IMG/VR virus record: IMGVR_UViG_3300047157_000166
Span: 1-39,078 of that record
Length of the DNA stretch: 39,078 nt
Direction: 5' to 3' (one strand)
Source of the DNA: a virus
The notes beneath the pieces are model-generated. The model was not told the DNA's origin, searched no databases, and worked only from the letters and a program-made list of their open reading frames with translations. This document shows positions 7,583-34,586 of the stretch, piece after piece. The position numbers and the translations under genes were made by a program. The first letter of the stretch is position 1. Every line of letters starts with the position of its first letter.

Positions 7583-7684
7583 ATGTACGAGTTGATAGTG
7601 ATGTCACTAACGGTAGCCATCAGCTGCCTAGCGGTACGGGACGCGGTTGTGCGCTGCCTGAAGATTACGGGGGGTTCGGAGTGA
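7583..7684 (+). CDS. 33-aa peptide
   Basis: ATG behind AAGGAGAG; the 16 bases TCAAGGAGAGAATATG are identical to those at the zinc-finger gene start (5361-5376). The peptide (MYELIVMSLTVAISCLAVRD) is hydrophobic at its start and basic at the end, so it may be a membrane peptide. Its stop overlaps the ribonucleotide reductase GTG start as GTGA, which suggests coupling as a leader peptide. Confidence 0.5.
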   Translation: MYELIVMSLTVAISCLAVRDAVVRCLKITGGSE

Positions 7685-9582
7685 GCGATAACAACATGGA
7701 CAACTTCCAGCAGTTCATCGGATACGCACGCTATAGCCGCTGGCGCCCCGAGCTTAATCGCCGGGAGCACTGGCACGAGACAGTGCGGCGCCTGACCGAC
7801 TGGTGGATGGAGCGCGCAGAGCTGACGGGCAAGGAGGCCGAGGAGCTGTACGACTACACGTACAACCTGAAGGTGTTCCCGTCTATGCGCACGCTGTACA
7901 CGGCTGGACCGGCACTCGATAGGGACCACATGAGTGCTTTTAATTGTACAGCCCAAAGTATCGACCATCAGGCGGCCTTTAGCGAGATGCTGTACGTGCT
8001 GATGGTAGGAGCGGGAGCTGGCTTCTCTGTAGAGCGGGACGAGATCAACAAGCTGCCACTCGTAGCCGAAACGATGCACCCGACGGAAACGACTCTAAAA
8101 ATCCATGATTCTCGCATCGGCTGGTGCAAGGGGCTAAAGCAGTTGATCGCCATGCTGTACGAGGGAGAGATTCCCAAGTACGACCTGAGCGCCCTGCGTC
8201 CAGCAGGGGCCGTGTTAAAGACATTCGGCGGCAGGAGTTCAGGGCCGGAGCCACTGGCTCGGCTGTTCGACCACTGCATCGAGGTGTGGAAGCAGGCAGC
8301 AGGCCGGCGCTTAAATTCACAAGAGGTCCACAGCGTGTGCTGCATGATCGGTGAGGTCGTGGTGTGTGGCGGGGTGCGGCGCAGTTCGCTTATCAGCCTT
8401 GGAAATCTTAGTGATGACAGACACCGACGCCTGAAGGTCGGGGAGTGGTGGCACGCAAATCCTCACTTCCGTATGGCTAACAACTCGGCGGTGTTCACTG
8501 ACAAGCCTGAGTTCGTAGCGTTTCAGGCAGAGATGCAGAGCCTCTACGACAGCAAGTGTGGAGAGCGCGGCATCCTGAACCGTCAGGCTGTGCAGAAGAA
8601 GGCAGAGGAGATCGGCAGGGACCACGAGCACAAGTTCTTAACCAACCCCTGCGGCGAGATCAGCTTGAGGAATGGTCAGGCATGTAACTTGTCGAGCGTA
8701 ATCATCCGACCAGATGACACGCTTGCAAGCCTGAAGGATAAGGTCCGGGTGGCGAGCATATACGGGACGCTGCAGTCGTCTCTGACCGAGTTCCGGTTCC
8801 TGCGCAAGAAGTGGCAGGACAACTGCGAGCAAGAAGCCCTGCTGGGCGTCAGCCTTACCGGGATATGTGACCACCCTGTTATGTCCGGCAAGAAGGGAGA
8901 GAAGGTTCTGATCGAGTGGCTGACCGAGCTGCGCAAGCACGCCCGGGAGGTCAACAAGAAGTGGGCCAAGCGTTTGGGCATCAACCCATCTGCTGCCATA
9001 ACCTGCATCAAGCCCGAGGGCACCAGCTCACTTCTGAATTCGACCAGTTCGGGAATTCACCCGCGCTATGCGCGTTACGTGAAGCGCACGGTGCGTCAGG
9101 CGAACACGGACCCATTGACGGCGTTCCTGAAGGATCAGGGCGTGCCCAATGAGCCGTGCGAGATGGACCCCTACGGGACCACGATCTTCAGCTTCCCGCT
9201 GGAGTCGCCGAAGGAGTCGCTGACCACCGACGAGGTTGGGACCGTTGACCAGCTCAAGCTGGGTGCCATTTACAACACCTTCTGGTGTGACCATCAGGTA
9301 AGCATGACGGTCTATTACGACGATTCCAGCTGGTATCCGATGGTTGACTATATGTGGACCCACTGGAATCAGATGACGGGCGTGTCGTTCCTCCCGAAGT
9401 TTGAGGGGAACACATTCAGTCAGGCGCCACTTAACGCCATCGACCGAGAGACGTACCTGAGACTCAAGAAGCAGCAGCCGGTCATCGACTGGTCGAAGCT
9501 GGCGGAGTTTGAGGCGGGCGAGGACTTCACCGAAGCGGGCAACCAATCTGCCTGTGAGGGTGACAAGTGTGAAATCTCGTGA
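7681..9582 (+). CDS. nrdJ: Class II (B12-dependent) ribonucleotide reductase, monomeric type
   Basis: Reduces ribonucleotides to deoxyribonucleotides using adenosylcobalamin. The 633-residue protein follows the Lactobacillus leichmannii type. Cys89 in AFNCTAQS and Cys335 in GQACNLSS are the expected redox pair, Cys324 in TNPCGEI is the expected thiyl-radical cysteine, and the C-terminal CEGDKC (Cys625, Cys630) is the expected re-reduction pair. GGVRRSSLISLG is also typical. It is somewhat shorter than the 739-residue reference, but both ends are present. It starts with GTG overlapping the preceding peptide (GTGA). An in-frame ATG at 7696 is an alternative. In the cell it would supply dNTPs for phage replication without needing oxygen or an iron cofactor, but it requires host B12. 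Confidence 0.93.
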   Translation: MSDNNMDNFQQFIGYARYSRWRPELNRREHWHETVRRLTDWWMERAELTGKEAEELYDYTYNLKVFPSMRTLYTAGPALDRDHMSAFNCTAQSIDHQAAFSEMLYVLMVGAGAGFSVERDEINKLPLVAETMHPTETTLKIHDSRIGWCKGLKQLIAMLYEGEIPKYDLSALRPAGAVLKTFGGRSSGPEPLARLFDHCIEVWKQAAGRRLNSQEVHSVCCMIGEVVVCGGVRRSSLISLGNLSDDRHRRLKVGEWWHANPHFRMANNSAVFTDKPEFVAFQAEMQSLYDSKCGERGILNRQAVQKKAEEIGRDHEHKFLTNPCGEISLRNGQACNLSSVIIRPDDTLASLKDKVRVASIYGTLQSSLTEFRFLRKKWQDNCEQEALLGVSLTGICDHPVMSGKKGEKVLIEWLTELRKHAREVNKKWAKRLGINPSAAITCIKPEGTSSLLNSTSSGIHPRYARYVKRTVRQANTDPLTAFLKDQGVPNEPCEMDPYGTTIFSFPLESPKESLTTDEVGTVDQLKLGAIYNTFWCDHQVSMTVYYDDSSWYPMVDYMWTHWNQMTGVSFLPKFEGNTFSQAPLNAIDRETYLRLKKQQPVIDWSKLAEFEAGEDFTEAGNQSACEGDKCEIS

Positions 9583-10269: not shown

Positions 10270-10718
10270 TGGGCTTCGGAGGAAAGATTAAACGAAATCA
10301 GGCAGATAAGCACTTCAGCGACTGCATCAGGAAGTCACAAAACTGGTCGTGCCAGCGATGCGGCAAAAACTATGAGGACAAGCCGGCCGGCCTGCAATGC
10401 AGCCACTTTATTACGAGGGGTAACTGGGCGGTTAGGTATGACACCTCCCTGTCCCTGTGCGCCTACTGCCATAACTGGGTGGAGGGAAACCCACCTGAAC
10501 ACATAAAGCTGTTTACAGCCCACATAGGAGGTGAGCGTGAGCTTGAAAAGTTTATTGAGAGGTCTGAGTGCAAAGGGCTCGCCCAGCACAACCGGGCAAA
10601 CGTCAAAGCCCTCAGCGCCTATTACAAGGCAGAGTCCGAGCGACTCTCCGAAGAGCTACAAAAAGCCAAGGAGGGCAAACAGCATGACCTCAAGCTCTAT
10701 CGATACATTAGACGGTAA
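10269..10718 (+). CDS. NinG/Rap-like recombination nuclease
   Basis: The 149-residue protein has CQRCG at 28-32, then CSHF with His46, then CAYCHNW at 64-70. This CxxC ... CSHF ... CxxC(H) order is that of the lambda NinG (Rap) family and related HNH-like zinc nucleases, in which LQCSHFISR is characteristic. NinG-type proteins act on branched recombination intermediates. The C-terminal half is a charged helix (ESERLSEELQKAKEGKQ). Its end overlaps the next gene's start by 35 bases. It sits in a cluster with a Sak3-like annealing protein and an SSB-like protein, supporting a recombination role. Confidence 0.75.
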   Translation: MGFGGKIKRNQADKHFSDCIRKSQNWSCQRCGKNYEDKPAGLQCSHFITRGNWAVRYDTSLSLCAYCHNWVEGNPPEHIKLFTAHIGGERELEKFIERSECKGLAQHNRANVKALSAYYKAESERLSEELQKAKEGKQHDLKLYRYIRR

Positions 10719-11589
10719 CGATCTGCTGCAGCACTGCAACACGCTGAAGCAGGAGGAGGCCGTGACCCTTGTCTACATCGAGGGCATGAGCAGGCGAGCG
10801 GCAGCTCGGCAGCTTGGCGTTGACGAGAAGAGCATACGTGAGCGGCTGCAGACGGTAGAGAAGCGAGCAGAGAAGGGACGTCGTAGCAATAACCCGGCGA
10901 CACCCGGCGGCACACGTGTCGGGATCATCGGTGACACCCACCTGCCCTATGAGCTGGACGGATACCTCGACTTCTGTCAGGAGACGTTCGACAAGTGGGG
11001 GGTCAATCGGGTCGTGCATATCGGCGACTTCGTCGATAACCACAGCCTCTCGTTTCACGACAGTGAGCCTATGCTCCACAACGTAACGGGCGAGTACGAG
11101 TCAGCCCTTGAGCGTGCTCAGGACTGGTACGAGGCGTTCCCCGAGGCGACGCTGATCATGGGCAACCATGACCGCATCCCGGCGAGGCAGCTTAGGAAGC
11201 TAGGCATGGAGCCGAGCATCTACATGCGGCCCATCGAGGAGCTGCTGGGTATGCCTTGGGATGTCGTTGACCAGATCGAGATCGACAACGTGCTGTACCA
11301 CCACGGCGAGACTGCCGGGGGCATCAACGGCTTCCGCAAAGACTGCGAGCAGCGGATGCGCTGCACGGTGTCGGGTCACAACCACAGCAACGCCGGGGTG
11401 TCTGCAACGGCCACCGACCAAGAGTTGGTCTGGGGTCTGGCTGTCGGCTGCGGCGTGAACCACGAGCACATGGCATTCGCCTACGGCAAGAACTTCGCGA
11501 AGAAGCCAATCATCTCGTGCGGCGTGGTCATCGATGGTGAGCCACACATTGAATACATGAACTTGGGATCAAAGGTAAGGAGGGCGTAA
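10684..11589 (+). CDS. HTH-metallophosphoesterase fusion
   Basis: A 301-residue protein starting at ATG 10684 behind AAGGAGG. Residues about 30-57 (YIEGMSRRAAARQLGVDEKS) look like a helix-turn-helix. From about 78 the calcineurin-like metallophosphoesterase motifs appear in order: GDTHLP (Asp84, His86), GDFVDNH (Asp115), GNHDR (Asn161, His162), LYHHGE and SGHNHS. All metal ligands appear present, so it should be active as a phosphatase or nuclease. Similar HTH-phosphoesterase proteins occur in many phages with unknown substrate. The link with recombination genes suggests nucleic acid, as in SbcD-like enzymes, but that is inference. Confidence 0.85.
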   Translation: MTSSSIDTLDGNDLLQHCNTLKQEEAVTLVYIEGMSRRAAARQLGVDEKSIRERLQTVEKRAEKGRRSNNPATPGGTRVGIIGDTHLPYELDGYLDFCQETFDKWGVNRVVHIGDFVDNHSLSFHDSEPMLHNVTGEYESALERAQDWYEAFPEATLIMGNHDRIPARQLRKLGMEPSIYMRPIEELLGMPWDVVDQIEIDNVLYHHGETAGGINGFRKDCEQRMRCTVSGHNHSNAGVSATATDQELVWGLAVGCGVNHEHMAFAYGKNFAKKPIISCGVVIDGEPHIEYMNLGSKVRRA

Positions 11590-12192: not shown

Positions 12193-12915
12193 ATGGATAA
12201 AGTTAATCGTTACATAGCGTTATCAAGGAAGGATGTCAGCAACGGCATCGAGCGCAAGGGCAATCTGGATTATTTGAGTTGGGCCTTCGCTTGGAACGCG
12301 CTGGTCGAGGAGTATTGTGACAGCACGTTTTATTTTGGCGAGCCCGTCACGTTCCCAGATGGGAGCATCATGGTCAAGGCAGGGGTCACCGTGAGAGACA
12401 TCACTCACGAGATGCAGTTGCCGGTCATGGGGTTAAAAAATCAGGCCCTAAAAGAGCCAAACGCCAGAGACGTCAGCGACGCGCAGATGCGTTGTCTGGT
12501 GAAGGCAATCGCCATGCACGGGGTTGGTATAGGTCTGTACCTCGGCGACCTGAAGCACGTTGTCGATACAACTACATACGAGAAGGCGGAGCAGTTGATA
12601 ACCGCACAGGATTCGATGGGCTTTCACGAGTTCGTCCACACCAAGCTATCCGAGCAGGAGCAGGTTGACGTCTTCAACGACGCACCCCCCGGCCGTAAGA
12701 CTGCGTTCAAGTCAGAGTGGCGTGCTCAGCTTGGTATCGCTAACAGCTTCCTCGACGAGGTGGCTGCGTCTATTACCGATGCAACGTCGGCGCAAGATGT
12801 CTCGCTGTTACAGGAGACGATTGGGGAGCTCTCCTCCTATGAGAGAAAAGCAGTATGGGGCCGTCTCAGTGAGGCCGAACAACAATTTGTTAAACAGGCA
12901 AGGAGTGCCGCATGA
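12193..12915 (+). CDS. Single-strand annealing protein, Sak3/DUF1071 type
   Basis: A 240-residue protein. The region from about residue 24 reads NLDYLSWAFAWNALVEEY, then YFGEPVTFPDGSIMVKAGVT and LPVMG, then DVSDAQMRCLVKAIAMHGVG and LYLGDL. This is the DUF1071 pattern (D-YLSWA-AW, VKT-VT, MRCL-K-IA-G-GLYIYAGEDL), a single-strand annealing recombinase family. The C-terminal 90 residues are helical and variable. It would pair complementary DNA strands in phage recombination or concatemer formation. It is followed, with an ATGA overlap, by an SSB-like gene and preceded by the NinG-like nuclease. Confidence 0.8.
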   Translation: MDKVNRYIALSRKDVSNGIERKGNLDYLSWAFAWNALVEEYCDSTFYFGEPVTFPDGSIMVKAGVTVRDITHEMQLPVMGLKNQALKEPNARDVSDAQMRCLVKAIAMHGVGIGLYLGDLKHVVDTTTYEKAEQLITAQDSMGFHEFVHTKLSEQEQVDVFNDAPPGRKTAFKSEWRAQLGIANSFLDEVAASITDATSAQDVSLLQETIGELSSYERKAVWGRLSEAEQQFVKQARSAA

Positions 12916-13169
12916 AGCAATTTAAAAAAGTAGTTGCGACCGTTGGTAAGTACACCGACGCAAATGGTCAGGAGAAGAACCGCTACGTAACAGTAGGCAA
13001 GGCGTTCATCCGTGACGACAAGAGCGTGTCGATCAAGGTTGACGCAATGCCGGTCGGCCCTGAGTTCAGTGGGTGGCTAAACCTGTACGACCTCGATGAG
13101 GATCGTCAGCAGCAGCCAGTCGCTCAGGCGGCTCCCGCTATGAACGTCAAAGAAGACCTGCCGTTCTAG
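12912..13169 (+). CDS. SSB-like protein with SSB-type C-terminal tip
   Basis: Eighty-five residues, coupled to the annealing gene by ATGA. The first 60 residues are strand-rich (FKKVVATVGKYTD, RYVTVGKAFIRDD, VSIKVDAMPVG), compatible with a small OB fold. A short flexible Gln/Ala/Pro linker leads to the end KEDLPF. That acidic-hydrophobic tip closely resembles the DDDIPF tail that bacterial SSB uses to recruit partners. Position beside an annealing protein supports single-strand DNA binding. Family membership is inferred, not proven. Confidence 0.55.
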   Translation: MKQFKKVVATVGKYTDANGQEKNRYVTVGKAFIRDDKSVSIKVDAMPVGPEFSGWLNLYDLDEDRQQQPVAQAAPAMNVKEDLPF

Positions 13170-13471
13170 TGACACCGGCAGAGATTGCCCTGATCGTCGT
13201 CCTCCTAGAGGGCGGCGTTCCGGGGCAGTACCAAGTCTGCATCAACGACGAGTGTGCTCTCTATGAGGGCACCGACCCACCCTATGCCCACGAGTACAAG
13301 GGCGGCATCAGGGTCAGGACTCCGGGTCAGGCTTGGAGTTCGCAGGCAAGAGGGAAGCACAACTGCCGGAGCTACTCCGGTAGCGGTCAAAAACTAACTA
13401 AGTCTGGGCACATCATCAACCGCATCTGCGGATATGACGATGGGTTCAGCATATTTTTCATGGAGAATTAA
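13169..13471 (+). CDS. Hypothetical 100-aa protein
   Basis: Starts with GTG in a TAGTG overlap with the SSB-like gene and ends in TAATG with the next. It has a short hydrophobic start (AEIALIVVLLEGG), then a Cys-containing strand region (YQVCINDECALYEG, HNCRSYSG, NRICGYDD). The cysteines could form disulfides or bind metal. The initial segment is too short to be sure of a signal peptide. Unknown function. Confidence 0.55.
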   Translation: MTPAEIALIVVLLEGGVPGQYQVCINDECALYEGTDPPYAHEYKGGIRVRTPGQAWSSQARGKHNCRSYSGSGQKLTKSGHIINRICGYDDGFSIFFMEN

Positions 13472-13599
13472 TGAGCAAGAAGCAACAACCCAAGCGCCTG
13501 TATCGACGCACCAACACTTACGGAATTTACTTCATCGCCGTTGTGGTGACCACGGTGCTGGTGTTCAACCTGCTGGAGCTGTCGCGTGTCTGTAATTGA
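13471..13599 (+). CDS. 42-aa membrane protein
   Basis: Coupled by TAATG. A basic N-terminus (MSKKQQPKRLYRRTNTYG) precedes a hydrophobic span (IYFIAVVVTTVLVFNLLELS), so it is probably a single-span membrane protein with its N-terminus inside the cell. It is at the end of the rightward operon. Unknown function. Confidence 0.55.
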   Translation: MSKKQQPKRLYRRTNTYGIYFIAVVVTTVLVFNLLELSRVCN

Positions 13600-13642
13600 C
13601 TTCGACGAGCTGCAGCTACTCAGCGGCTACCCGACCGCATAG
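13586..13642 (+). pseudogene. 18-aa frame resembling the start of a DUF4224-like protein
   Basis: GTG at 13586 lies behind GGAG. The 18 residues MSVIDFDELQLLSGYPTA resemble the first helix of small phage DUF4224-type proteins (typically DEL-LTGY-RPSAQ-RWL), then stop. Neither alternative frame restores the rest. It may be a remnant or a genuine very short peptide; evidence is thin. Confidence 0.25.
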
Positions 13643-13804
13643 AAACTAGGTCAACAATTTAAAAAATTGGAGCAGTTTTGAGCGAAAGTGAGCGTATATA
13701 TAGCTTTCCCGTCCAAGGTGTTGGTATGCTTTATTATACGACGCACAAGGATGTGCATCTCACGAGTAGCTCACCCTTTCGTTGGAGCAAGTGTAGGAGC
13801 AGGG
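13643..13804. other. Convergent intergenic region
   Basis: No gene is seen between the ends of the rightward and leftward operons. It holds an AT-rich dyad CAATTT-AAA-AAATTG (13655-13669), a TATATATA tract near 13694, and a small hairpin GCACA-AGGA-TGTGC (13743-13756). AGGGCTA/TAGCCCT (13801-13819) forms a 7-bp stem over the stop of the leftward gene. None has a clear trailing T run, so no intrinsic terminator is called. Confidence 0.4.
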
Positions 13805-15055
13805 CTACTTCTTAGCCCTTAAAGCCTCTGCAAACAGGGAGTCGAACACCTCTCTATCGTAGTCATCGAGCAGACCGTCATCATACATTTCCCGAATCTT
13901 GTACGGGTCTCTTCTGATCCAGAACTTGAGTCCGTCACCCGTAAGGACATCACTGGGCTCAATCTTCCTTCCAGTTACCTCCTCTACCGCGTCATACGCC
14001 TCGTTCATTATCCCGTTGCCACGGTGATCCGTGTTCATACGCATCCCGTATGCACTAAGGTCGCCGTCTGGTGTTACGTAAAACTCCGCGCCGCCAATCG
14101 TGCTGCCTTGATCATCGACTATGTTGAAGAGATGATCGGACTGGGTAGCAGCGGGGCTCCTGCCATCGACTAGCCTGAGACCCATCCTTGCCAGACTGGC
14201 AACCGATGCATCAGACTCCTCTGACTGCCCGGCGGACAACAGGCCAGCAAGGCCAGCAGTGCCTGCGGCACCGCCCATGATGTTGCTGCCCTTGTACTGC
14301 GGATCGAATGCGGCGTTGGGGGAGCGGATGATCGTGTTGTCTAATACAGCAACGTCTTTGATCTCTGGATTAAAGCGCTGGTAGTCAGCTAGGTCGTCGT
14401 AGTCGAGTATGTGCTCAGAGCCCTCGTAGAACCCCAGCGACCCATCGTCATTCTTGACCAGCGAATTTCGCCTGTCGCCGTACTTGTTATCTGGGTCAAC
14501 CTTCAGCCTGCCGCCAACAGGCAGTGCGTCTATGGTCGATTGATCTATCTTGTCACCACCGCGCACCACGATGTCGCTGACCCCGGTGTCGAGCAATCCC
14601 TCCCTGAACTGCGTACCGTAACCGAGATCATCGCCCATCGACTCGCCATAGTTCACAACGTCGCGCCAGTCGCCCCTGCGTCCCTTCTCAAGTACAGCGG
14701 GCGTATAGGTCAATGGGTCGTCGATGTTCTGCTTTCTATACGCTGTGGCGGGATGCGGGTCAGTGGTAAACCAGTGAGCGTTGAATGGAGTATCAGGGTC
14801 GTCAGTGGGTAGCCTTGAGTTGTCAAAGCCCTCGCCCTTTATGCCTCCGCGATTGACGTGAACCAGACCCTCGTCAGCATAGCGAGCGTCACGCCTAGCC
14901 ACCCTGCTGGCCTCGTCCATAGGCAGCTCGCCCGTGGCAATACGCTTCGCCACAGACTCGGGGAAGCCACCGACGCGCACTAGGTCTTCTGCAGCCCCGG
15001 CAATGTCGTCGCCTCTAGCATTTAGTATGATTTTAACTAGCGATGCTGCACTCAC
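13805..15055 (-). CDS. Polyvalent-type ART-like and GNAT-like fusion, probable ejected protein
   Basis: The 416-residue protein is the last gene of the late operon. Residues 42-50 (GELPMDEAS) then VHVNRGG and WFTTDPHPATAYR (95-107), closing at IRSPNAAFDP, follow the ADP-ribosyltransferase-like domain of phage polyvalent proteins. There the pattern is LPMD-AS, YHGT, FT-DP-A--YA and a final IRS-AAFDP. The usual His-Gly is replaced by VNRGG, so activity is doubtful. A Gly/Ala-rich segment (NIMGGAAGTAGLAGLL) and SEESDAS follow. The C-terminal part (MNTDHRGNGIMNEAYDAVEE, then LTGDGLKFWIRRDP) resembles a GNAT acetyltransferase-like domain of the same protein class. Probably delivered with the genome; that is inference. 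Confidence 0.6.
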   Translation of the reverse strand: MSAASLVKIILNARGDDIAGAAEDLVRVGGFPESVAKRIATGELPMDEASRVARRDARYADEGLVHVNRGGIKGEGFDNSRLPTDDPDTPFNAHWFTTDPHPATAYRKQNIDDPLTYTPAVLEKGRRGDWRDVVNYGESMGDDLGYGTQFREGLLDTGVSDIVVRGGDKIDQSTIDALPVGGRLKVDPDNKYGDRRNSLVKNDDGSLGFYEGSEHILDYDDLADYQRFNPEIKDVAVLDNTIIRSPNAAFDPQYKGSNIMGGAAGTAGLAGLLSAGQSEESDASVASLARMGLRLVDGRSPAATQSDHLFNIVDDQGSTIGGAEFYVTPDGDLSAYGMRMNTDHRGNGIMNEAYDAVEEVTGRKIEPSDVLTGDGLKFWIRRDPYKIREMYDDGLLDDYDREVFDSLFAEALRAKK

Positions 15056-16182
15056 TACTGGGCCTCTCTGGTCATCATCTCGATCATCTCAAACAGCGTC
15101 GGTCCCTGCTTGCCCTCACCGAAGTAGAACTCTGCCTCCGCCTTCGGCATCCTCATGTCGTTATATGGATGCATATTTGGCGACATACGGTCTCCTGCAA
15201 GCATTCTTAGGCGGGCCTCGACCGCCCTAGCCTCCGCCTCACCGGCGCTGCTCATGTAGCCCAGACGGTCTGTGGCGTACCTGTGGGCCTCCTTCATTGG
15301 GTCATCGTCAGGCAGGCTATGACTGCTCCTGCTGGCGTCAAGAATCCTGCCCAGCTGTGTCATCTTGTTCTCAACGATATCCTCGTAGACCTTCCACGGG
15401 TCGTCGCCAGTGGGCAGCAGGCTCATGGCGCTGTGCTTCTGTGGGTTCCTGATGTATGACTGGATGTCATCAATCGAAGTTGCCTCGCTCGCCCCTCTAG
15501 CAAGGCCCTCCCTGTCCTGAATGGCGTGCTGCGACTCGTGCAGCAGGCTCCGCAAGCTCTCGCCCCTGCCGGTCTCCGCCATGTAGCCGGTGTTCAGGTG
15601 CATCTCGCCCATCGGGTGACCGTCCCTTGGCCGAGTGTACGCAGCTGGAGAGTCGCCGAGAAGCCAGCTGTTGGGCCTCCAGAGGTAAACGGACATATCG
15701 GCCATATCAGGGTATGCCCTGTACATCGGGTTGTGTCTGACCATGTCAATCATCGAGGTGCCGACATGGTCCTTGCCCTCGCCGTAGTAGTCGTTCTGAA
15801 GCCTCTCGGATAGGGTCTTGGAATATCGCTTGTCGTACAAGCTGTTCAGCGATGCGTTGGAGTCGTTGATCTCGTAGCGTGGCTTATTGTCAGCGCCAAT
15901 GAACCAAGGCTGCCTGCTGTTTCCGGCCTCTCTGGACGCGGCTGCTTGGTGGCGCCCGCTCTCTATCAGGTCATCGAAGTTGGTAAAGATGCTGGGAGTT
16001 TCGTCCATGTGCTGCTTGAACACCCCGTGCGCTGCCTTCGCTCCTAAGATGTTGGCGCCCTTAGCCCCCAGAGAAGCGAATACCGCATCGGCATCTTCCG
16101 ACTGCGTAGCCGCAGCGCCGCCTGCAAGGGCGGGCGCCAGCCACTTCTTTATTATCTGATCTGCTGCTATCTTGGCTACCAT
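15055..16182 (-). CDS. Polyvalent-type HExxH metallopeptidase-like protein
   Basis: A 375-residue protein. LLHESQHAIQDREG contains HESQH (215-219), an HExxH zinc motif, and SSAGEAEARAVEAR (about 311-324) offers the third Glu ligand. The combination LLHE-QHA-Q--EG and AGE-EAR-V is typical of metallopeptidase-like domains in large phage polyvalent proteins. The upstream MGEMHLNTGYM region fits the strand before the active site. The N-terminus has a hydrophobic Ala/Gly segment followed by SEDADA, shared in style with neighbouring genes. A TAATG-type junction links it to the ART-like gene. Expected role: proteolysis of host proteins after injection, or virion processing. Both are inference. Confidence 0.65.
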   Translation of the reverse strand: MVAKIAADQIIKKWLAPALAGGAAATQSEDADAVFASLGAKGANILGAKAAHGVFKQHMDETPSIFTNFDDLIESGRHQAAASREAGNSRQPWFIGADNKPRYEINDSNASLNSLYDKRYSKTLSERLQNDYYGEGKDHVGTSMIDMVRHNPMYRAYPDMADMSVYLWRPNSWLLGDSPAAYTRPRDGHPMGEMHLNTGYMAETGRGESLRSLLHESQHAIQDREGLARGASEATSIDDIQSYIRNPQKHSAMSLLPTGDDPWKVYEDIVENKMTQLGRILDASRSSHSLPDDDPMKEAHRYATDRLGYMSSAGEAEARAVEARLRMLAGDRMSPNMHPYNDMRMPKAEAEFYFGEGKQGPTLFEMIEMMTREAQ

Positions 16183-16226
16183 TAGAGTGCCTTACCTCCT
16201 GCCTTTGCTATCAGTGACGTAGTCAT

Positions 16227-17216
16227 TTACTTGAGGAGTCCTCTTACAGACTCGGCCGCTGCTTTAGCAGGGGTTGATATCCCATCCTTCCAGACACCCA
16301 TCCCCATAATCGCCAGCGGATTGGCTAGGTATTCGGTTGCAAAACCAAGCGCGGCGGAGTCGTCCTTGTGCCATCCCCTGCCCGCAGCCCACTGCTCAGC
16401 AAGCTCTGCGTTATGCTCTGGAGAGTTCCCGGAGACTCGGACTCCATTATCCCATGCATCACCAAAAGACTCACCAGTTGCCAGTCCGTAGATGCCTCTT
16501 CCTATCCCGTTGGTGTAGCTGCCAACCTTATTGTATGAGTCATCCGCGCTCGAGTAGTTGTTTCCGAAAAAATCCAGCCACGGCATCACAGCATCCTTGT
16601 ACGTGGACGGATCTGTCACCCGGTCCCAGTAGCTGGGCTCTGGCTCGAAGTCAGACCAAGGCTGGAATCCTCGGGTCTCTGGGCTGGTCATCTCGCCGGC
16701 CTTGGTTGATCCAGCAGCTCCGGCCGCACTAGCGGCCATCATTTCCTTTAGACCGCCGAAGGCGTTATTAGGCTCAGGCGGCTTTACGGGTGCCCTAGTT
16801 GTCTTCACCTCCTCCACGTAGCCAAGCGGCCTGCCTAGGTGGACCTTGCGCCACTCTTCCAGCTGGCGCAGAGACTCATTAGAGAGCCCGCCGTGTTCCA
16901 CTATCTGATCGTAGATTGACTGAACCCCCTCCTTCCAGTACGGGCCGGCAGTGGTGCCATCAACGTCGGCCCCCTTGGCGTACTTTCCCAGCGCGTCGTA
17001 GGTGCTAAATTTGGGGTCGTGAATTAGGCTCTGTGGAACGGACAAGGCATTTTTCTTGCCCTCTCCTGCGGCTGTCCTCTTGTTGAAGAGGTTTACCAGC
17101 TCGCCAAGGGCGTGCACAACGGGTCGTACGGGGGCGGCCTCTGCATCGTCCGATGCAAACAGTCCGCCAATCCCGGCGGCGACTGGTCCCAGTAATCCCT
17201 TTGGTGGTAACGGCAC
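16227..17216 (-). CDS. Probable internal virion or ejected protein, unknown fold
   Basis: A 329-residue protein whose N-terminus is hydrophobic and Gly/Ala-rich (LLGPVAAGIGGLFASDDAEA), the same style of module seen in the next two genes. The middle region is polar with an Ala/Gly-rich stretch (MMAASAAGAAGSTKAGEM), followed by Trp/Tyr-rich segments (FEPEPSYWDRVTDPSTY and MPWLDFFGNN). A final helical hydrophobic part (ALGFATEYLANPLAIMGMG) may insert in a membrane. No catalytic motif recognised. Placement between a methyltransferase-like and a peptidase-like gene suggests it belongs to the same ejected set. Confidence 0.55.
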   Translation of the reverse strand: MPLPPKGLLGPVAAGIGGLFASDDAEAAPVRPVVHALGELVNLFNKRTAAGEGKKNALSVPQSLIHDPKFSTYDALGKYAKGADVDGTTAGPYWKEGVQSIYDQIVEHGGLSNESLRQLEEWRKVHLGRPLGYVEEVKTTRAPVKPPEPNNAFGGLKEMMAASAAGAAGSTKAGEMTSPETRGFQPWSDFEPEPSYWDRVTDPSTYKDAVMPWLDFFGNNYSSADDSYNKVGSYTNGIGRGIYGLATGESFGDAWDNGVRVSGNSPEHNAELAEQWAAGRGWHKDDSAALGFATEYLANPLAIMGMGVWKDGISTPAKAAAESVRGLLK

Positions 17217-17809
17217 TAGTTTCTCCTTCTTATCAGTGCGCCGGTCGCTGCCAGCTTCTCGGGCGTTATCTCAAACTCCCTGTCCTTTATCTCTTCAGCC
17301 TGACGCAACATGTAGTCGATAAGGCTCTCGTTCTTCCCACCAAACCCGTACTGGTATGTGCCCCGACTTGTCACGATCCCTCCGTCATCCAGCAGGCTGG
17401 GTTTCTTCGCCGTCATGACGTCGCCGTATGATCTGGCACCGATCGCTGCCACACCGTCCGGGTTCAGCTTGCTAAGTATGTCCAGAGCAATCTTTGATCT
17501 CAGCGGCTCGGGCACGACGTTCAGCACGTTCAGGTTGGCGATGCCGTCAAACATCATGCCGGGCGACTCGGTGAAGTCAGGCGAATAACCAGCAGATGGG
17601 TTGGGCTCGTATGACACGGCCCTAGGGCCTAGGTGCTGGGTGCCGTGACCGAGACCCGCCCCGTAGTCGAGTACGTCGCCAGTAACACCCTCTCGCTGGA
17701 GTATCTCTCCGGCCTTCTTGTAGGTGCCGCCAGTGGTAGCCACCTGCGTCTTGCCGCTATTCTTTGCCAGCTCCTCCGCAACGGAGAGCAGACCCTTAAG
17801 TACCGACAT
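17216..17809 (-). CDS. SAM-dependent methyltransferase-like protein
   Basis: A 197-residue protein with a clear class I methyltransferase motif I, VLDYGAGLGHGT (46-57), an acidic end of strand 2 (SYEPN, Glu68), and NLNVLNVVPEP (92-102) in the motif IV position. The fold seems short but complete. Methyltransferase domains of this type with GDVLDYGAGLG and a V-N-LNV-P segment occur inside phage polyvalent proteins; here the domain is a stand-alone gene. The substrate is unknown. It lies directly downstream of the 939-residue internal protein, start behind GGAG, and upstream of the other cassette genes. Confidence 0.75.
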   Translation of the reverse strand: MSVLKGLLSVAEELAKNSGKTQVATTGGTYKKAGEILQREGVTGDVLDYGAGLGHGTQHLGPRAVSYEPNPSAGYSPDFTESPGMMFDGIANLNVLNVVPEPLRSKIALDILSKLNPDGVAAIGARSYGDVMTAKKPSLLDDGGIVTSRGTYQYGFGGKNESLIDYMLRQAEEIKDREFEITPEKLAATGALIRRRN

Positions 17810-20629
17810 CTACTCCTCCATTAACTCTTCGACTAGCAGCGGCGCTGCGAACAGGCTCGATGTGCCGAGCCCCAACAGTGCCAGCAGGGACGGGTCGATG
17901 TTGCCGACGTCCACGCCGCGATCCTGCAGCTTCTTCAATATCTCTGGCGTGATGGTTCCCCGCTTCGGGCCCATCTGCATTGCACGTATGTCTGGGTCGG
18001 CAGGGTTCAGTGCGTCTACCGCGTCCCCTACCCGCCTCTGATCTTCGCCTATGCGTGCGTCTGGGATTAGGTCGAAGATAGTCATGGGCTGATCTTCAAG
18101 CGTTCCTAGACCCTCCCCGGGCATATTGTGCGAGTAGTCTGGATGCAGGTCATCAACAATGACGGGCTTGCTGCCGTGTAGCTCGCCCACGTTCATTATC
18201 CCGCCCTGACGCGAATTAAGCTGGCGCGGGTCTGCAATGGACAGCCGAGCCTCACCTATATTTAGGCCGCCACGGTTTCTGAACTGCACATCCATCGCGC
18301 TCTTGATTGCCTTACGCTTCTTGTCGGACATCGCTTGGAAGGATGCCACGGCGTCGTCGCTATCGAGCCCAGCCCAGCTGTCGTCAATCCCCCTGATGAC
18401 GGCGTCGAATTGCTTCCTCGTTGCCTTGTCCATGTTGGACTGCGCGTAGCGGATCATCGTGCCGCCCGTCATGCTGGAGAAGTCGCTGCCCTGCGGCGCC
18501 ATACGCCAAGGTATAAAAATCACGTTGTCACCGTTGGCTGCGGCCATATTCTTGGTCACGGCAGACTGCTGTGAGGCCCACACCTTGCCCGGATTCCAGA
18601 ACATGAAGTCCTGACCACCCAGTAGCGGCTGCTCACTGGCAAGGTCCACTCCGTTGATGCTGACAATGCGACCCCCGGCGTCTGTCCGGTCTGACATCGA
18701 GGTGATGAAGTCGCGGCCCTCAAGGTCTGAAAGCTTCAGCTGGGGAACATCTGGCCGTGGCGCGTAAATCTTCTCGACGATCAGATCCTGCAGCCTCTGC
18801 TGCTCGCCCACCCGCTTGTCGTACCGTGGGTCGAACTCGTCGAAAGAATGCCTGACGGTGTCGAACAGGCTCCCGTACAGGCGCGGGTTGTTCAGATAGA
18901 AGTCCACTGCTGGCTCACCCCAATGCTTGTCGATGATGCGGTCAGTGATACCCCTGTACTCTCTGGTCGCGGTTCCTGAGTTGGGTATGCCGTCGCTAAG
19001 GAAGTTAGACAGGCTGGCTGCATCAAACACACGCTGCGTCTCGGGCCGACTGTGGCCGCGACCGCGCTTGTACTCGCCCTGAAAGATGTTGCCCAGAGCC
19101 GTGTTAAGGCTCCTGCCGTTCAGGTTCCCGTCGTTGCCTATTGCGGCGCCCTTCTCCAGCGCCATACGAACGCGAGCCATGTCGCGAGCGTCTGCGAACC
19201 TAGCGGCCACTCCGGTGGGGGCGGTCCTCTCGATGAGGTCGTCGATCTCGTTAATAAGGCCGTCCAGAGCGTCGGAGTAGTCGCCGTTCGTGCCTTGGTT
19301 GTTGCTGCGCTGCTTCACCAGCTTCTTGCGTAGGTTGACCAGCTTGTCGCCGTCCATTCCCTCGGCCACCCTCATGGCGTAGTCGTCCAGCTGCTTCTTC
19401 TGTGCCTTTGTAAGGCCAGCGTCCACGGCCAGCTCCGCCACGTTGGTCAGGAACCTATCGTCGCCCACAGTGCGCGTCAAACCCTTCTCGGCATCCTTGT
19501 AAGCCTTGGTGATGACCTCGTCTATCTGGCGCCGCACCTCGGGGGTGAAGTTGTCCACGTTATCGATCCCGAAGCGATCTGCGACCATCTTGTTCAGATG
19601 GGCACGCTGCTCCTCCCATATATCGTGCAGCTTCTGACCAGACGGCTGCGACGACATACGTGCCTCGTCCTGTGCCTGCCTGCGCTGCCGTGATCGCTGC
19701 GCCGGGGTGAGGTTCATGCCCTCCCTCTCTGCAACCTGAAGAAGGCGCTGCGTCTCCTCTGCGCTCTGTCCTGAGACCCTAGGTGCCGCCCTGCCTGTGA
19801 CGGCGTCTATTGCCGCCCCGCCACCGTTGGAGAACACACGCCCGACAAGGTCAAACGCCTTGCCGAATATTCCTGCCGTGGTCGCTGCCACGCCCGCGTC
19901 AGCAAGCGCGTTATCGTTGGAGCTGTGGTCGATGCCAGCCTCAATGCCTGCCCATAACATCTGAGCAGGTATGCGGCCGGGGGCCGCCAAGGTCGGGGCC
20001 GCTGCACCAAACTCACCCACGCCGGTAGCGAATGGGTTGCTCGTGCCATAGCTGTCCTCTGCGAACTGCTCTGCGGCCGCCGCCTGACGGTCAAGCTCTA
20101 TCCCTTCCTCATCGGTCTGCCACGGGTTGAGGTTACTGATGCCGCGCTGGAAGCTGCGGATCTGCTCGCCCATGCCCATGACGCCGGCATCAAAGGATCG
20201 GCCCACGCTCTCTCCGACGAAGTCGTCTACTAGCCCCGGCCTGATCCTGTCGAACTGCTCTCGCTCGTCAGCCGACCCGACTCGCTGGTCCATAGGTCTG
20301 GGAGGTCTAGCGGCACGCTCCTCTGCATAGATGGCGGCCTCTGCCTCCTCGACCATGAGGTCGATTTGCTCGTCCAGCTCGGCCTTGTATCGAGCCCTTC
20401 CGCCGATCAACTCGGGCATCAGGAACGGCGTCAGGCCGGTCATGCCTCCCAGAAGCATCTTGCCGAATGTCTTGCCCTTGCCGTCTCGCTCCATCATCTT
20501 CTCGATGGGGCTCAGGGGCACGGGCAGCAGTGACTCTGATAGCCCTGCCTCCGCCACCATCTCGGGACTAACCCCAGCCTCTGAGGTCTCGGCCCGAAGT
20601 CGCTCCAGCTCTTCTTGGAATAAGCTCAT
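17810..20629 (-). CDS. Large internal virion protein (939 aa)
   Basis: The longest gene. The N-terminal third has an Ala/Gly-rich amphipathic region (about residues 195-280, including GEFGAAAPTLAAPGRI and AGVAATTAGIFGKAF) that could interact with membrane. The middle (about 300-560) is helical and charged. A C-terminal segment (DNVIFIPWRMAPQGSDFSS, then RKQFDAVIRGI, SDKKRKAIKSAMDVQFR and GEARLSIADPRQL) recalls a conserved region found in many phage polyvalent and internal virion proteins of unknown function. The end is hydrophobic (LLALLGLGTSSLFAAPLL). Position after Gln/Asn-rich virion proteins suggests a DNA-ejection protein analogous in place to P22 gp16/gp20. The start overlaps the previous stop (TAATG). 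Confidence 0.65.
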   Translation of the reverse strand: MSLFQEELERLRAETSEAGVSPEMVAEAGLSESLLPVPLSPIEKMMERDGKGKTFGKMLLGGMTGLTPFLMPELIGGRARYKAELDEQIDLMVEEAEAAIYAEERAARPPRPMDQRVGSADEREQFDRIRPGLVDDFVGESVGRSFDAGVMGMGEQIRSFQRGISNLNPWQTDEEGIELDRQAAAAEQFAEDSYGTSNPFATGVGEFGAAAPTLAAPGRIPAQMLWAGIEAGIDHSSNDNALADAGVAATTAGIFGKAFDLVGRVFSNGGGAAIDAVTGRAAPRVSGQSAEETQRLLQVAEREGMNLTPAQRSRQRRQAQDEARMSSQPSGQKLHDIWEEQRAHLNKMVADRFGIDNVDNFTPEVRRQIDEVITKAYKDAEKGLTRTVGDDRFLTNVAELAVDAGLTKAQKKQLDDYAMRVAEGMDGDKLVNLRKKLVKQRSNNQGTNGDYSDALDGLINEIDDLIERTAPTGVAARFADARDMARVRMALEKGAAIGNDGNLNGRSLNTALGNIFQGEYKRGRGHSRPETQRVFDAASLSNFLSDGIPNSGTATREYRGITDRIIDKHWGEPAVDFYLNNPRLYGSLFDTVRHSFDEFDPRYDKRVGEQQRLQDLIVEKIYAPRPDVPQLKLSDLEGRDFITSMSDRTDAGGRIVSINGVDLASEQPLLGGQDFMFWNPGKVWASQQSAVTKNMAAANGDNVIFIPWRMAPQGSDFSSMTGGTMIRYAQSNMDKATRKQFDAVIRGIDDSWAGLDSDDAVASFQAMSDKKRKAIKSAMDVQFRNRGGLNIGEARLSIADPRQLNSRQGGIMNVGELHGSKPVIVDDLHPDYSHNMPGEGLGTLEDQPMTIFDLIPDARIGEDQRRVGDAVDALNPADPDIRAMQMGPKRGTITPEILKKLQDRGVDVGNIDPSLLALLGLGTSSLFAAPLLVEELMEE

Positions 20630-21048
20630 TAGTATTGCCCTTGGTTGCCCTGTCCGTACTGCCCGCCATAGTTCATGTTCGGGTTAACGCCGTAGGGGTT
20701 CATGTTCTGATTCGGGTTCATCTGCTGACGCATGTAGTCGTTGATGTTGAACTGCTGCGCCGGCTGCTGCGGCTGCTCAGGCTGTGGCCTGTACTTGTCG
20801 ATGAAGCCCTGCATGAACTCCGGCGTCTCCATCTGGATCGGCAGGCCCATTGCAGAGCCAAACAGCTTCATAGCTGGGTTGCTGTTCATGGCCTCCATTC
20901 CGCCCTTCAGCATCTCGCCGAACGCGGGGAACGCCGTCTGTAGCAGCGCCCCCTGAAGGTTCTGCTGGGCCTTGCCAGCCTCCTTCATCATCTTCGAGCC
21001 AGATGTGCTGCTTGAACTGCCCTTGTCTTTTCCACCCAAGTTCAACAT
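20629..21048 (-). CDS. Gln/Asn/Met-rich internal virion protein
   Basis: The start is set at the ATG behind AAGGAG (21048), not at the longer frame, which runs into the preceding gene. The 139-residue protein has a Ser/Lys-rich start (GGKDKGSSSSTSGSKMM) and a helical, mildly hydrophobic middle (FPAFGEMLKGGMEAMNS). The tail consists of Gln, Asn, Pro, Gly and Tyr (MNPNQNMNPYGVNPNMNY). Such tails are typical of disordered ejection proteins. Role inferred from composition and position between another such gene and the 939-residue protein. Confidence 0.55.
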   Translation of the reverse strand: MLNLGGKDKGSSSSTSGSKMMKEAGKAQQNLQGALLQTAFPAFGEMLKGGMEAMNSNPAMKLFGSAMGLPIQMETPEFMQGFIDKYRPQPEQPQQPAQQFNINDYMRQQMNPNQNMNPYGVNPNMNYGGQYGQGNQGQY

Positions 21049-21061
21049 TTGATTTATCTCC

Positions 21062-21955
21062 TTATCCCGTGAAGCTAAAGCTGGGTGGTTGTACGTTCCA
21101 GCTGCTGCCTGATCCTGTTGATGTCCCAGAACTGGTGTTCGTGGACCCCTGCATACCCATGCCGGCCTGCATACCATTGCTGAAGCCGTTTGAGTTGCTT
21201 GAGTTCTGGCTGCTGCCCGAGGACGACCCGAGCACCGTGGGCCCGCCAATGATCTGCCCGTACTGCCCGGTGGCGTTCAGGCCGGCCATTGCTGGATTGA
21301 ACTGGTTCATGGCGCCCTGCTGCATGTTCTGCATGTTGCCCAGACCCGCCTGCTGGTTTCGGTCTTGCATCCCGGCTAGGTTCATCTGGTTTTGGACGCC
21401 CTGATTCTGCGAGTTGAAGCGCAGCTGGTTCAGGCCCTGCATAGTATTCTGGTCTACGTTGTCAGCCATCTGGTTTACGCTGTTGTGGTAACCAGATGAT
21501 CCTGACATCCCTGCTGCGGCTGCTCTCGCGTCGAGACCGCCGAGGTTCTGCTGTTTGATCTTTGCCGCGTCACTCATCATGTCGCCGGCCAGTGCGTCGG
21601 TGTAGGCGTTAGGCCCAACCTGACCCTGCAAGCCAGACGCAAAACCGCCGCCGAGCTGGTTGCCGTAGCCGCCCTGAGCCTGATCGAGGGCGCCGGATAC
21701 CTGACCCTGCACCTGCGGCTGCATACCGTTGATCTGGTCGATGGCCTGACCGTACTGGTTGCCGGCGGAGTCATAGACGTTGGCAAGGGCGTCCTGCTGC
21801 CCATCCCATACGCCTTGGCTGCTGCTGTTAGTCGATGTGCCCTGAGATGACGCCGCCTGACCAGACTGGTTCATCCCATAGTTCATGTTGACGCCGGAGC
21901 TGACCCCCTGACTGCTCTGCGAGCTGTTGGAGGTTTGCTTACTTTTCCCGCCCAT
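21062..21955 (-). CDS. Ser/Gln/Asn/Gly-rich internal virion protein
   Basis: A 297-residue protein of strikingly low complexity: runs such as SNSSQSSQGVSSGVN at the start, helical QAIDQINGMQPQVQGQ and AAKIKQQNLGGLDARAAAAG in the middle, then QNQMNLAGMQDRNQQAG and a Ser/Gly tail. The start MGGKSKQTS is common in phage proteins thought to be ejected. Likely a minor virion protein that leaves with the DNA, by analogy with P22 gp7; there is no sequence proof. Confidence 0.55.
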   Translation of the reverse strand: MGGKSKQTSNSSQSSQGVSSGVNMNYGMNQSGQAASSQGTSTNSSSQGVWDGQQDALANVYDSAGNQYGQAIDQINGMQPQVQGQVSGALDQAQGGYGNQLGGGFASGLQGQVGPNAYTDALAGDMMSDAAKIKQQNLGGLDARAAAAGMSGSSGYHNSVNQMADNVDQNTMQGLNQLRFNSQNQGVQNQMNLAGMQDRNQQAGLGNMQNMQQGAMNQFNPAMAGLNATGQYGQIIGGPTVLGSSSGSSQNSSNSNGFSNGMQAGMGMQGSTNTSSGTSTGSGSSWNVQPPSFSFTG

Positions 21956-21958
21956 TGT

Positions 21959-22393
21959 TTAACCCTCTAGGTCTTTTCCAAAAATGATTTCTCTAATCTC
22001 CCAGCCCACCTTGTCTACTGCGTACTGCACAGCAGGCATCTGGGCCGAGCGTGTCTCAATTCGTTGGCAGTTAAACTGCCGAGCTACGTCCTCGTAGAAT
22101 CTGGCAAACGTCACTGCGTTTGCACCGCCCCGCTCCTTTGCCCACGACAGCCACAGAAGGAAAGTCCTGCTGCCCGTGAACTGATCGACCTCGATGGTCG
22201 CGACGTTAAAGAAGTCGGGGTGAACCCAGAGTTGGCTCTCGCCGTTGACGCAGCTTGCGTATACGTCCTCTGGCCTGAATGTCAGGTTGGGGTCTAGGTG
22301 CAGGATCTCCTTGATCCCCGGCTTGACCCAGTGCCACTCCTCACGGATGTTGGCTAATTGCGGCTGTACTACGTCAGGTTTAGCTTCTTCCAT
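21959..22393 (-). CDS. Hypothetical 144-aa structural-region protein
   Basis: The start is at the ATG behind AAGGAGAG (22393). Protein: REEWHWVKPGIKEILHLDPN, RPEDVYASCVNGESQLWVHP, TGSRTFLLWLSWAKERGG. This resembles small phage proteins with an acetyltransferase-like outline encoded near tail genes (W---K-G---IL, DVY--C-----LW), but the match is loose. Its 5' end overlaps the previous gene by 25 bases. Function not assigned. Confidence 0.5.
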   Translation of the reverse strand: MEEAKPDVVQPQLANIREEWHWVKPGIKEILHLDPNLTFRPEDVYASCVNGESQLWVHPDFFNVATIEVDQFTGSRTFLLWLSWAKERGGANAVTFARFYEDVARQFNCQRIETRSAQMPAVQYAVDKVGWEIREIIFGKDLEG

Positions 22394-22602
22394 ACGATCT
22401 CTCCTTGATCCTCGACGCATCCGTAGAATCCCTTCTCACGGACATAAACTATGGCACCTATCTCTCGGCGCAGAGGCATCTGGCCGATCACTGGCGCGAT
22501 GAAGCGCGACAGGTGTGAATCAATTCCAAAGAACTGGCGATCCAAGAACTCCGCCAGCTGCTCGTCTACAGTATCCGGTACGGGCTCCGCTCTATATGTC
22601 AT
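22369..22602 (-). CDS. Hypothetical 77-aa protein in the tail region
   Basis: Coupled by ATGA to the tail protein gene upstream. Protein: MTYRAEPVPDTVDEQLAEFLDR, then SRFIAPVIGQMPLRREIGAIVY, then a strand-rich end. Small proteins with a P-D-V-EQL--EFL-R-F start occur in podovirus tail operons between tail and internal protein genes. Role unknown. Confidence 0.55.
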   Translation of the reverse strand: MTYRAEPVPDTVDEQLAEFLDRQFFGIDSHLSRFIAPVIGQMPLRREIGAIVYVREKGFYGCVEDQGEIVWKKLNLT

Positions 22603-34351: not shown

Positions 34352-34586
34352 ATTGATTCTCCTTGTTTGCATTGATTAAGACGCCGGAGTTGACTAAGGA
34401 TTCGAGATACATCTCCAATCTGGTTAGCGCTACGGCCTCAGTGTGTAATTCATGCAAGTCTTCCGTCGGCATCGTGCCCACGAACTGCTCAAAAAGTTCT
34501 TGTCTCCTGCTGTCGAGGAACTCCTGCGTTAGGTTGAGTTCCGCCTGCGCGAGCTTTGCCCGCTTTAATTCTGACTCAGCGTCCAT
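34344..34586 (-). CDS. Hypothetical 80-aa protein between portal and scaffold
   Basis: ATG behind CGGAG. Fully helical in appearance (ESELKRAKLAQAELNLTQEF, LHTEAVALTRLEMYLESLV). Eight bases overlap the scaffold start. Likely a minor head-assembly factor by place; no family recognised. Confidence 0.55.
   Translation of the reverse strand: MDAESELKRAKLAQAELNLTQEFLDSRRQELFEQFVGTMPTEDLHELHTEAVALTRLEMYLESLVNSGVLINANKENQYV

What the first reader, a model, noticed from the sequence alone, without database searches (positions are those of the whole stretch)
13805..17809. Unfused polyvalent-protein effector cassette at the end of the late operon
Four consecutive genes after the 939-aa internal protein encode a methyltransferase, an unknown, an HExxH peptidase and an ART-like plus GNAT-like fusion. 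In other phages such domains are usually joined in one giant ejected protein. Here they are separate genes placed where ejected virion proteins lie. This suggests a modular set delivered with the DNA to disarm host defences.
Basis: partly seen in the sequence, partly recalled or inferred. Interest (0 to 1): 0.8.

Follow-up and report, generated by a model that had tools for sequence, protein, structure and literature searches.

The report
Split phage polyvalent effector gene cassette
This phage carries, as separate neighbouring genes at the end of its virion-gene operon, a set of enzyme modules that related phages string together in one long protein, and the modules share a short conserved joint sequence that may help deliver them into, or release them inside, the bacterial host.

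Summary
Four intact, tightly packed genes lie last in the late operon: a methyltransferase-like protein, an unknown, an HExxH zincin peptidase, and an ART-like + GNAT-like fusion. Each has a relative fused to an ART module in one polypeptide in other phages; the peptidase also has relatives inside giant proteins of Pseudomonas phages F116 and 8P. The last third of the 939-aa upstream protein is a fifth module. A phage about 99% identical outside one swapped stretch carries that module as a free gene, so fusion/fission is recent. Its predicted fold weakly resembles YTH/EVE (PUA-like) modified-base readers. The new element is a short joint at module borders: a Gly/Ala/Leu stretch, an acidic patch, then [A/S]xA. 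A profile of it gave 94 matches against none in reversed or shuffled proteins; it sits at the N-termini of two cassette proteins and inside a third. The ART family usually lies beside terminase, portal or other head genes. Delivery with the DNA is therefore likely but unproven. 'Disarming defences' is untested; the methyltransferase lacks DNA-methyltransferase motifs. The window's own ART copy is weakly supported (structure model failed). Verdict: a real, unfused variant of known polyvalent proteins.

The parts
13805..15055 (-). ART416: N-terminal conserved segment, ART-like middle, joint, GNAT-like end
   Evidence: ORF; relatives match ART-PolyVal; Acetyltransf_1 E 0.0064; own structure model failed
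15055..16182 (-). HExxH375: zincin metallopeptidase of the polyvalent type, with N-terminal joint
   Evidence: LPD23 2.5e-5; relatives in F116, 8P, D14S giants; catalytic residues invariant
16227..17216 (-). unk329: unknown two-part protein with N-terminal joint; first domain fused behind ART and joint in L003, L030, L073
17216..17809 (-). MT197: class I methyltransferase-like protein
   Evidence: Methyltransf_23 8e-5; fused homologue in L061 above cut-off; solo homologue in Microcystis phage MJing1, 44%
17813..18871 (-). 939-C module (aa 587-939 of the 939-aa protein): polyvalent module, free gene in L002 and L025; fold weakly YTH/EVE-like
18872..20629 (-). N-terminal part of the 939-aa protein, presumed ejection-type virion protein; most of it replaced in L002
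   Evidence: position, and L002 breakpoint exactly at codon 587; N-terminal ~100 aa shared with L002, L025, L003, L073, L074
14207..14275 (-). Internal joint of ART416 (aa 261-283, GGAAGTAGLAGLLSAGQSEESDA)
16084..16143 (-). N-terminal joint of HExxH375 (aa 14-33, WLAPALAGGAAATQSEDADA)
   Evidence: first 40 aa 36/40 identical to L025 homologue against 45% overall; L025 homologue found by the joint profile at 7.4 bits
17136..17198 (-). N-terminal joint of unk329 (aa 7-27, GLLGPVAAGIGGLFASDDAEA)
   Evidence: joint profile 7.9 bits in L002 copy, 14.9 in L025 homologue
17813..17896 (-). C-terminal hydrophobic tail of the 939-C module (aa 912-939), C-terminal form of the joint without [AS]xA
   Evidence: hydropathy 2.01 over 19 residues; same module end is followed by a full joint in L028 and L063

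Best explanation
The region is an unfused polyvalent effector cassette. Five modules (939-C, methyltransferase-like, unknown, zincin peptidase, ART-like+GNAT-like) are made late with the virion proteins and are most likely packed in the head and ejected with the DNA, one of them riding on the 939-aa ejection-type protein. Shown: gene anatomy, position, homology to ART-fused relatives, a recent swap that turned a free module into a fusion (or the reverse), and a conserved joint at module borders. Inferred: that the joint is a delivery or release element (a short hydrophobic stretch of signal-peptide length plus a cleavable [A/S]xA site that frees modules), and that the freed enzymes then modify host proteins or nucleic acid early in infection. 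Which host pathway is hit is unknown.
For: Cassette intact and under purifying selection. Every module has an ART-fused relative. The 939-C module is free in L002 and L025 and fused to the 939-aa protein here; flanks 98.9-99.3% identical and breakpoint at codon 587. Genes next to the ART family: 46 in a terminase large subunit cluster, 31 in a virion structural protein cluster, others portal, major head protein, scaffold. Solo MT overlaps the portal-like gene in MJing1. g297 relative matches 'DNA ejection protein' 1e-14. Joint profile: 94 matches vs 0 reversed and 0 shuffled; strict motif 44/58 vs 3.3 +/- 1.6 in shuffles; kept as protein while codons change; internal joints have [AS]xA 46/57, C-terminal ones 0/5.
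Against: No virion proteomics; no function tested. The joint could be a passive linker. Internal joints are too weakly hydrophobic for clear membrane anchors. The window's ART copy is not matched by ART-PolyVal and its model failed. MT197 carries no joint. The Fisher test is not corrected for common ancestry. No protease for the joint is identified: this zincin family is absent from most related records.
Confidence: 0.55

Rival explanations
1. The N-terminal joints are ordinary export signals: the peptidase and the unknown protein are made late, exported by the host Sec pathway, cut by signal peptidase I, and act in the envelope (lysis, exclusion of other phages) rather than being packaged.
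For: HExxH375 and unk329 start with a charged segment, a hydrophobic stretch of about 13-15 residues and [A]xA; -3 is A or S and -1 is A in the joints.
Against: Most joints lie inside proteins, some with two in one chain, which fits export poorly; the acidic patch is unusual for a signal peptide; genes lie among head genes.
Confidence: 0.15
2. The zincin peptidase of the cassette is the dedicated processing enzyme that cuts the joints of these proteins, as proposed for polyvalent proteins in general.
For: Zincin-like metallopeptidases were predicted to process polyvalent proteins, and P1 DdrB is processed before packaging (PMC5512222). The window and L025 carry both the zincin and joints.
Against: Of 21 searched related records, only one has this zincin over its length (two more gave short partial matches), although most carry joints. 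Some records are fragments and other protease families were not searched.
Confidence: 0.12
3. The joint is a passive flexible linker that is simply where modules recombine; it has no delivery or release role, and the proteins may or may not be packaged.
For: It lies at module borders in mosaic proteins, and Gly/Ala-rich linkers are common.
Against: Specific acidic-[AS]xA pattern far above shuffles; occurs at the N-termini of single-module proteins; conserved as protein rather than as DNA; the motif is missing at C-terminal joints.
Confidence: 0.15
4. The separate genes are fragments of one broken giant gene, split by mutation or by sequencing errors in the record.
For: The record does show apparent frameshifts elsewhere: the portal gene is spread over three ORFs.
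Against: No gap against L002 over 6,174 bases of the cassette region; separate genes also in L025; ribosome-binding-like sequences before three of the genes; pN/pS 0.20, though on only 10 changes.
Confidence: 0.03

Closest known systems
Polyvalent proteins of phages and conjugative elements (Iyer et al. 2017, PMC5512222)
   Same: Same domain set (zincin, ART, GNAT, methylase), encoded with late virion genes; ART next to GNAT and solo versions of several domains were already described
   Different: Here the modules are mostly separate genes in one operon, with a conserved joint at their ends; the words signal peptide and transmembrane do not occur in the paper's main text, nor do YTH/EVE/PUA
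Giant proteins of Pseudomonas phages F116, D14S and 8P
   Same: Contain a relative of the HExxH375 zincin with the same HExxH and GExEAR residues
   Different: Single proteins of 1649, 3812 and 5145 aa in which no clear joint was found by the profile
T4 internal proteins / Alt and giant-phage head propeptides
   Same: Separate effector or head proteins packed in the capsid and ejected, some with short propeptides that are cleaved (PMC9503650, PMC10052503)
   Different: SPN3US prohead protease sites are AXE; the joint here ends in [AS]xA and some copies contain no glutamate
YTH / EVE (PUA-like) modified-base readers
   Same: 939-C module: all 50 listed PDB matches in the second-look alignment are YTH or the PH1033 structure, Z 5.3-6.9
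   Different: Not significant in Foldseek (E 0.29), no Pfam match, large helical insertion

Membership tests
Polyvalent proteins (phage type) | Domains drawn from the polyvalent set (zincin, ART, GNAT, MTase) | tested here: met
   zincin firm, the others probable
Polyvalent proteins (phage type) | Several such domains in one polypeptide | tested here: not met
   Only ART416 joins two enzyme domains; MT197, unk329 and HExxH375 are separate genes. Hence 'unfused counterpart', not member
Polyvalent proteins (phage type) | Encoded with late virion genes | tested here: met
Polyvalent proteins (phage type) | Delivered into the host with the DNA | not testable with these tools
   needs virion proteomics
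Zincin-like metallopeptidase | HExxH and a downstream glutamate in the second helix | tested here: met
   H215 E216 H219 and GExEAR invariant in five sequences; fold not modelled
LPD23 (PF18838) | Score above the Pfam gathering cut-off | tested here: inconclusive
   24.4 against 27 bits, E 2.5e-5
ART-PolyVal (PF18760) | Match of the window protein to the family | tested here: not met
   No match in the window copy; 6 of 13 relatives match. Profile comparison weak, model failed; aligned histidine H66 kept
GNAT acetyltransferase | Score above cut-off of a GNAT model | tested here: inconclusive
   Acetyltransf_1 17.2 against 20.7 bits
Class I methyltransferase (Methyltransf_23) | Score above cut-off | tested here: inconclusive
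   22.8 against 27 in the window; 31.1 in L061 homologue
DNA adenine/cytosine methyltransferase | [DNS]PP[YFW] or PC motif | tested here: not met
   neither present in MT197
YTH/EVE PUA-like fold (939-C module) | Significant structural match | tested here: inconclusive
   VIA Z 6.9, Foldseek E 0.29
Sec signal peptide (N-termini of HExxH375 and unk329) | Charged start, hydrophobic core, [AS]xA site | tested here: inconclusive
   Read from the sequence; no signal-peptide predictor available; the acidic patch is atypical

The most novel reading that the evidence does not exclude
The joint is a general delivery-and-release element for ejected phage effectors: a short hydrophobic stretch plus a cleavable [A/S]xA site found on or between otherwise unrelated enzyme modules, so that phages can carry the modules fused or as separate genes and still deliver them; one of the modules is a YTH/EVE-like modified-base reader.
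Probability: 0.22. Interest if true: 0.85.

Novelty: new variant of a known kind. Interest (0 to 1): 0.6.

Why it matters
If the joint marks proteins for packaging, ejection or release, it would give a sequence handle for finding phage effectors that enter the cell with the DNA, including short ones that do not stand out by size. The near-identical pair (window and L002), in which one module is fused or free, makes a direct comparison of the two states possible. The weak YTH/EVE resemblance, if real, would add a modified-base reader to the set of ejected modules.

Tried and rejected
AlphaFold2 model of ART416 with 22 sequences failed (pLDDT 48), so it was not searched. Sequence searches of the PDB with the ART and 939-C alignments gave nothing, and with MT197 only two matches worse than E 0.05. 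A genome-contig scan with the ART alignment found no relative; with the 939-C alignment, one small Flavobacteriaceae MAG contig. tblastn of ART416, the 939-aa protein and the L025 C-module against cultured phages found nothing. Viral scans seeded with the peptidase or the unknown-protein pair reached only L002 and the L025 contig. NCBIfam gave no usable match. Rejected: broken-gene reading; DNA self-methylation by MT197. Disfavoured: zincin as the general joint protease; internal joints as ordinary transmembrane anchors, by hydropathy; AXE-type prohead protease sites, because some joints have no glutamate. No paper on virion proteomics of the Flavobacterium phage or on polyvalent internal virion proteins of podoviruses was found in the held library.

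Full report
Setting. The window is a 39,078-base IMG/VR virus record. PHROG matches on the minus strand give terminase large subunit (36711-38114), portal (35719-36711 and 34623-35372), scaffold (33275-34372), major head protein (32232-33107), virion structural proteins (31066-31728, 22599-24176) and tail-fibre-like proteins. Replication-type genes are on the plus strand. The cassette ends at 13805, facing a plus-strand ORF that ends at 13471.

Observation. Their junctions are tight (stop-start overlaps or abutting codons, one gap of 44 bases), and ribosome-binding-like sequences precede MT197, unk329 and HExxH375. Contig L002 (IMGVR 3300032011_001631) aligns to window 12699-18872 at 99.3% identity without a gap; 6 synonymous and 4 non-synonymous changes fall in the cassette. 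Contig L025 (IMGVR 3300047376_000522) has separate genes for the 939-C module (361 aa), the unknown (333 aa), the peptidase (348 aa) and an ART (419 aa), and no MT gene between them. The set is therefore real and variable in content.

Domains. The 375-aa protein is a polyvalent-type zincin: Pfam LPD23 at 2.5e-5 (just below cut-off), 24-27% identity to parts of 8P_023 (5145 aa), F116p60 (1649 aa) and the D14S giant (3812 aa), with H215, E216, H219 and the GExEAR glutamate invariant in an alignment of five that includes L068. The 197-aa protein resembles class I methyltransferases (Methyltransf_23 8e-5, below cut-off); its homologue in L061 exceeds the cut-off. It has neither a DPPY-type nor a PC motif, so a DNA methyltransferase is not indicated. 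The 416-aa protein has a conserved N-terminal segment (GFPESVAxRIATGELPMDEASR), a variable middle, a conserved IRSxNAAFDPxYxGxNIMG, the joint, and a GNAT-like end (Acetyltransf_1 0.0064, below cut-off). Six of 13 relatives match ART-PolyVal, and fused relatives exceed its cut-off. The window's own middle part does not match it; profile-profile comparison is weak (E 3.6e-4, probability 37%, 53 columns) and the structure model failed. The 329-aa protein remains unknown; its first domain (about 72 aa) is fused behind ART and joint in L003, L030 and L073/L074.

The fifth module. Residues 587-939 of the upstream 939-aa protein are 42-46% identical to domains fused to an ART in L028, L067, L078, L082, L084, L089 and L093. 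In L002 the flanks are 98.9-99.3% identical to the window but the stretch between them differs, and the shared sequence resumes at codon 587; there the module is a free 365-aa gene. So within one close lineage the module is free in one phage and fused to an ejection-type protein in the other. That the N-terminal part is ejection-type rests on position and on neighbour g297, whose homologue in L008 matches the PHROG 'DNA ejection protein' at 1e-14; the N-terminal part itself has no family match. The module's model is confident (pLDDT 87, pTM 0.83). In the second-look alignment to the PDB, the 50 rows shown are YTH domains and the PH1033 structure (Z 5.3-6.9), but Foldseek itself gives only E 0.29, Pfam gives nothing relevant, and Z under 8 can be a common arrangement. 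EVE and YTH domains are modified-base readers (PMC7641849); that PH1033 is an EVE-type protein is from my own knowledge. The main text of the 2017 polyvalent-protein paper does not contain YTH, EVE, ASCH or PUA. I treat this as a lead.

The joint. In the ART family the conserved NIMG/NILG is followed by a Gly/Ala/Leu stretch, an acidic patch and [A/S]xA, for example GGTAAGALGLTALMAPEEAEA|G. A profile made from these sites gives 94 matches of at least 10 bits among 998 predicted proteins of 85 sequences, and none in reversed or 20-residue block-shuffled versions; most of the 94 are seed sites or copies of them. Twenty-one matches of at least 6 bits were not preceded by the usual AAFDP; several are ART ends with a variant of it, others lie after the 939-C module (L028, L037, L039, L063), between domains of L003, and at the N-termini of the unknown protein (L002 and L025 copies) and of the peptidase in L025. 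A strict form of the motif occurs in 44 of 58 tails against 3.3 +/- 1.6 in shuffles and 2 in reversed tails. Between the window and L025 the first 40 residues of the peptidase are 36/40 identical against 45% overall, with 9 synonymous codon changes; between ART416 and L004 the joint keeps 16/20 residues with 10 changed codons. The joint is thus conserved as protein. Joints at the very C-terminus lack [A/S]xA (0 of 5) while internal ones mostly have it (46 of 57; Fisher p 7e-4, not corrected for ancestry). The 939-aa protein ends in a strongly hydrophobic stretch (hydropathy 2.01), whereas internal joints are only moderately hydrophobic.

Position in relatives. Of the genes one or two places from an ART-family gene, 46 belong to a terminase-large-subunit cluster upstream and 31 to a virion structural protein cluster downstream; others are portal, head, major head and scaffold proteins. 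Microcystis phage MJing1 carries a solo MT, 44% identical, overlapping its portal-like gene (portal-like is my reading of the protein). Octadecabacter Antarctic DB virus 2 gp6 has an ART-family region by tblastn and lies between the terminase and tail tubular genes.

Mechanism. The best-supported account is that these are virion-associated effectors made late, packed with the head contents and ejected, and that the joint is a shared delivery or release element. Anatomy, homology and conservation are shown; packaging, cleavage and targets are inferred. The zincin is unlikely to be the general cutter of joints, because that family was matched over its length in only 1 of 21 searched related records (some are fragments). 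The competing view, that the N-terminal joints are export signals acting late in infection, cannot be excluded but fits internal joints poorly.

Relation to known systems. The domain set, the link to virion genes, ART next to GNAT, and the existence of solo domains are already described for polyvalent proteins (PMC5512222). What differs is the nearly complete unfused set in one operon, the free/fused pair of near-identical phages, and the joint. I therefore file it as a new variant of a known kind.

Noticed in passing
34623-36711 (-): The portal gene is spread over three ORFs in different frames (PHROG portal matches at 16-364 and 494-709 of 714), which suggests two frameshifts in the record, real or sequencing error.
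   Followed up: partly
20629-21249 and 21062-21955 (-): The 206-aa ORF overlaps g297 by 188 bases; the L002 homologue is 141 aa starting MGGRSK, and the window-L002 alignment of 20373-23704 has 11 gap openings, so the 206-aa start is probably a frameshift artefact.
   Followed up: partly
L004:125-2337, L044, L067, L082, L014: Tandem or repeated ART units, as neighbouring genes (L004, L014) or within one protein (L044, L067, L082), with the same N-terminal segment and joint and different middles.
   Followed up: partly
L003:9974-12271, L061:1136-4834, L097:2752-4233: A second recurring module with H/EDGRHRA motif (resembles ParB-like DdrB domains, from memory) is joined to ART proteins.
   Followed up: no
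L098 (PQ492659.1): Limnohabitans phage DC33 is filed under Inoviridae although its 39-kb genome and 3125-aa protein with an ART-like match look like a tailed phage.
   Followed up: no
L096:18010-19524 (-): In MJing1 the gene beside the solo MT has a joint-like stretch (GLLVGDPGDAEGAG, 6.4 bits) and the MT itself ends in a hydrophobic-acidic tail (GASGLLAEPPEETMR).
   Followed up: no
7681-9582 (+), 10531-11589 (+): A ribonucleotide reductase (633 aa) and a metallo-phosphoesterase (352 aa) by PHROG match are encoded on the plus strand.
   Followed up: no
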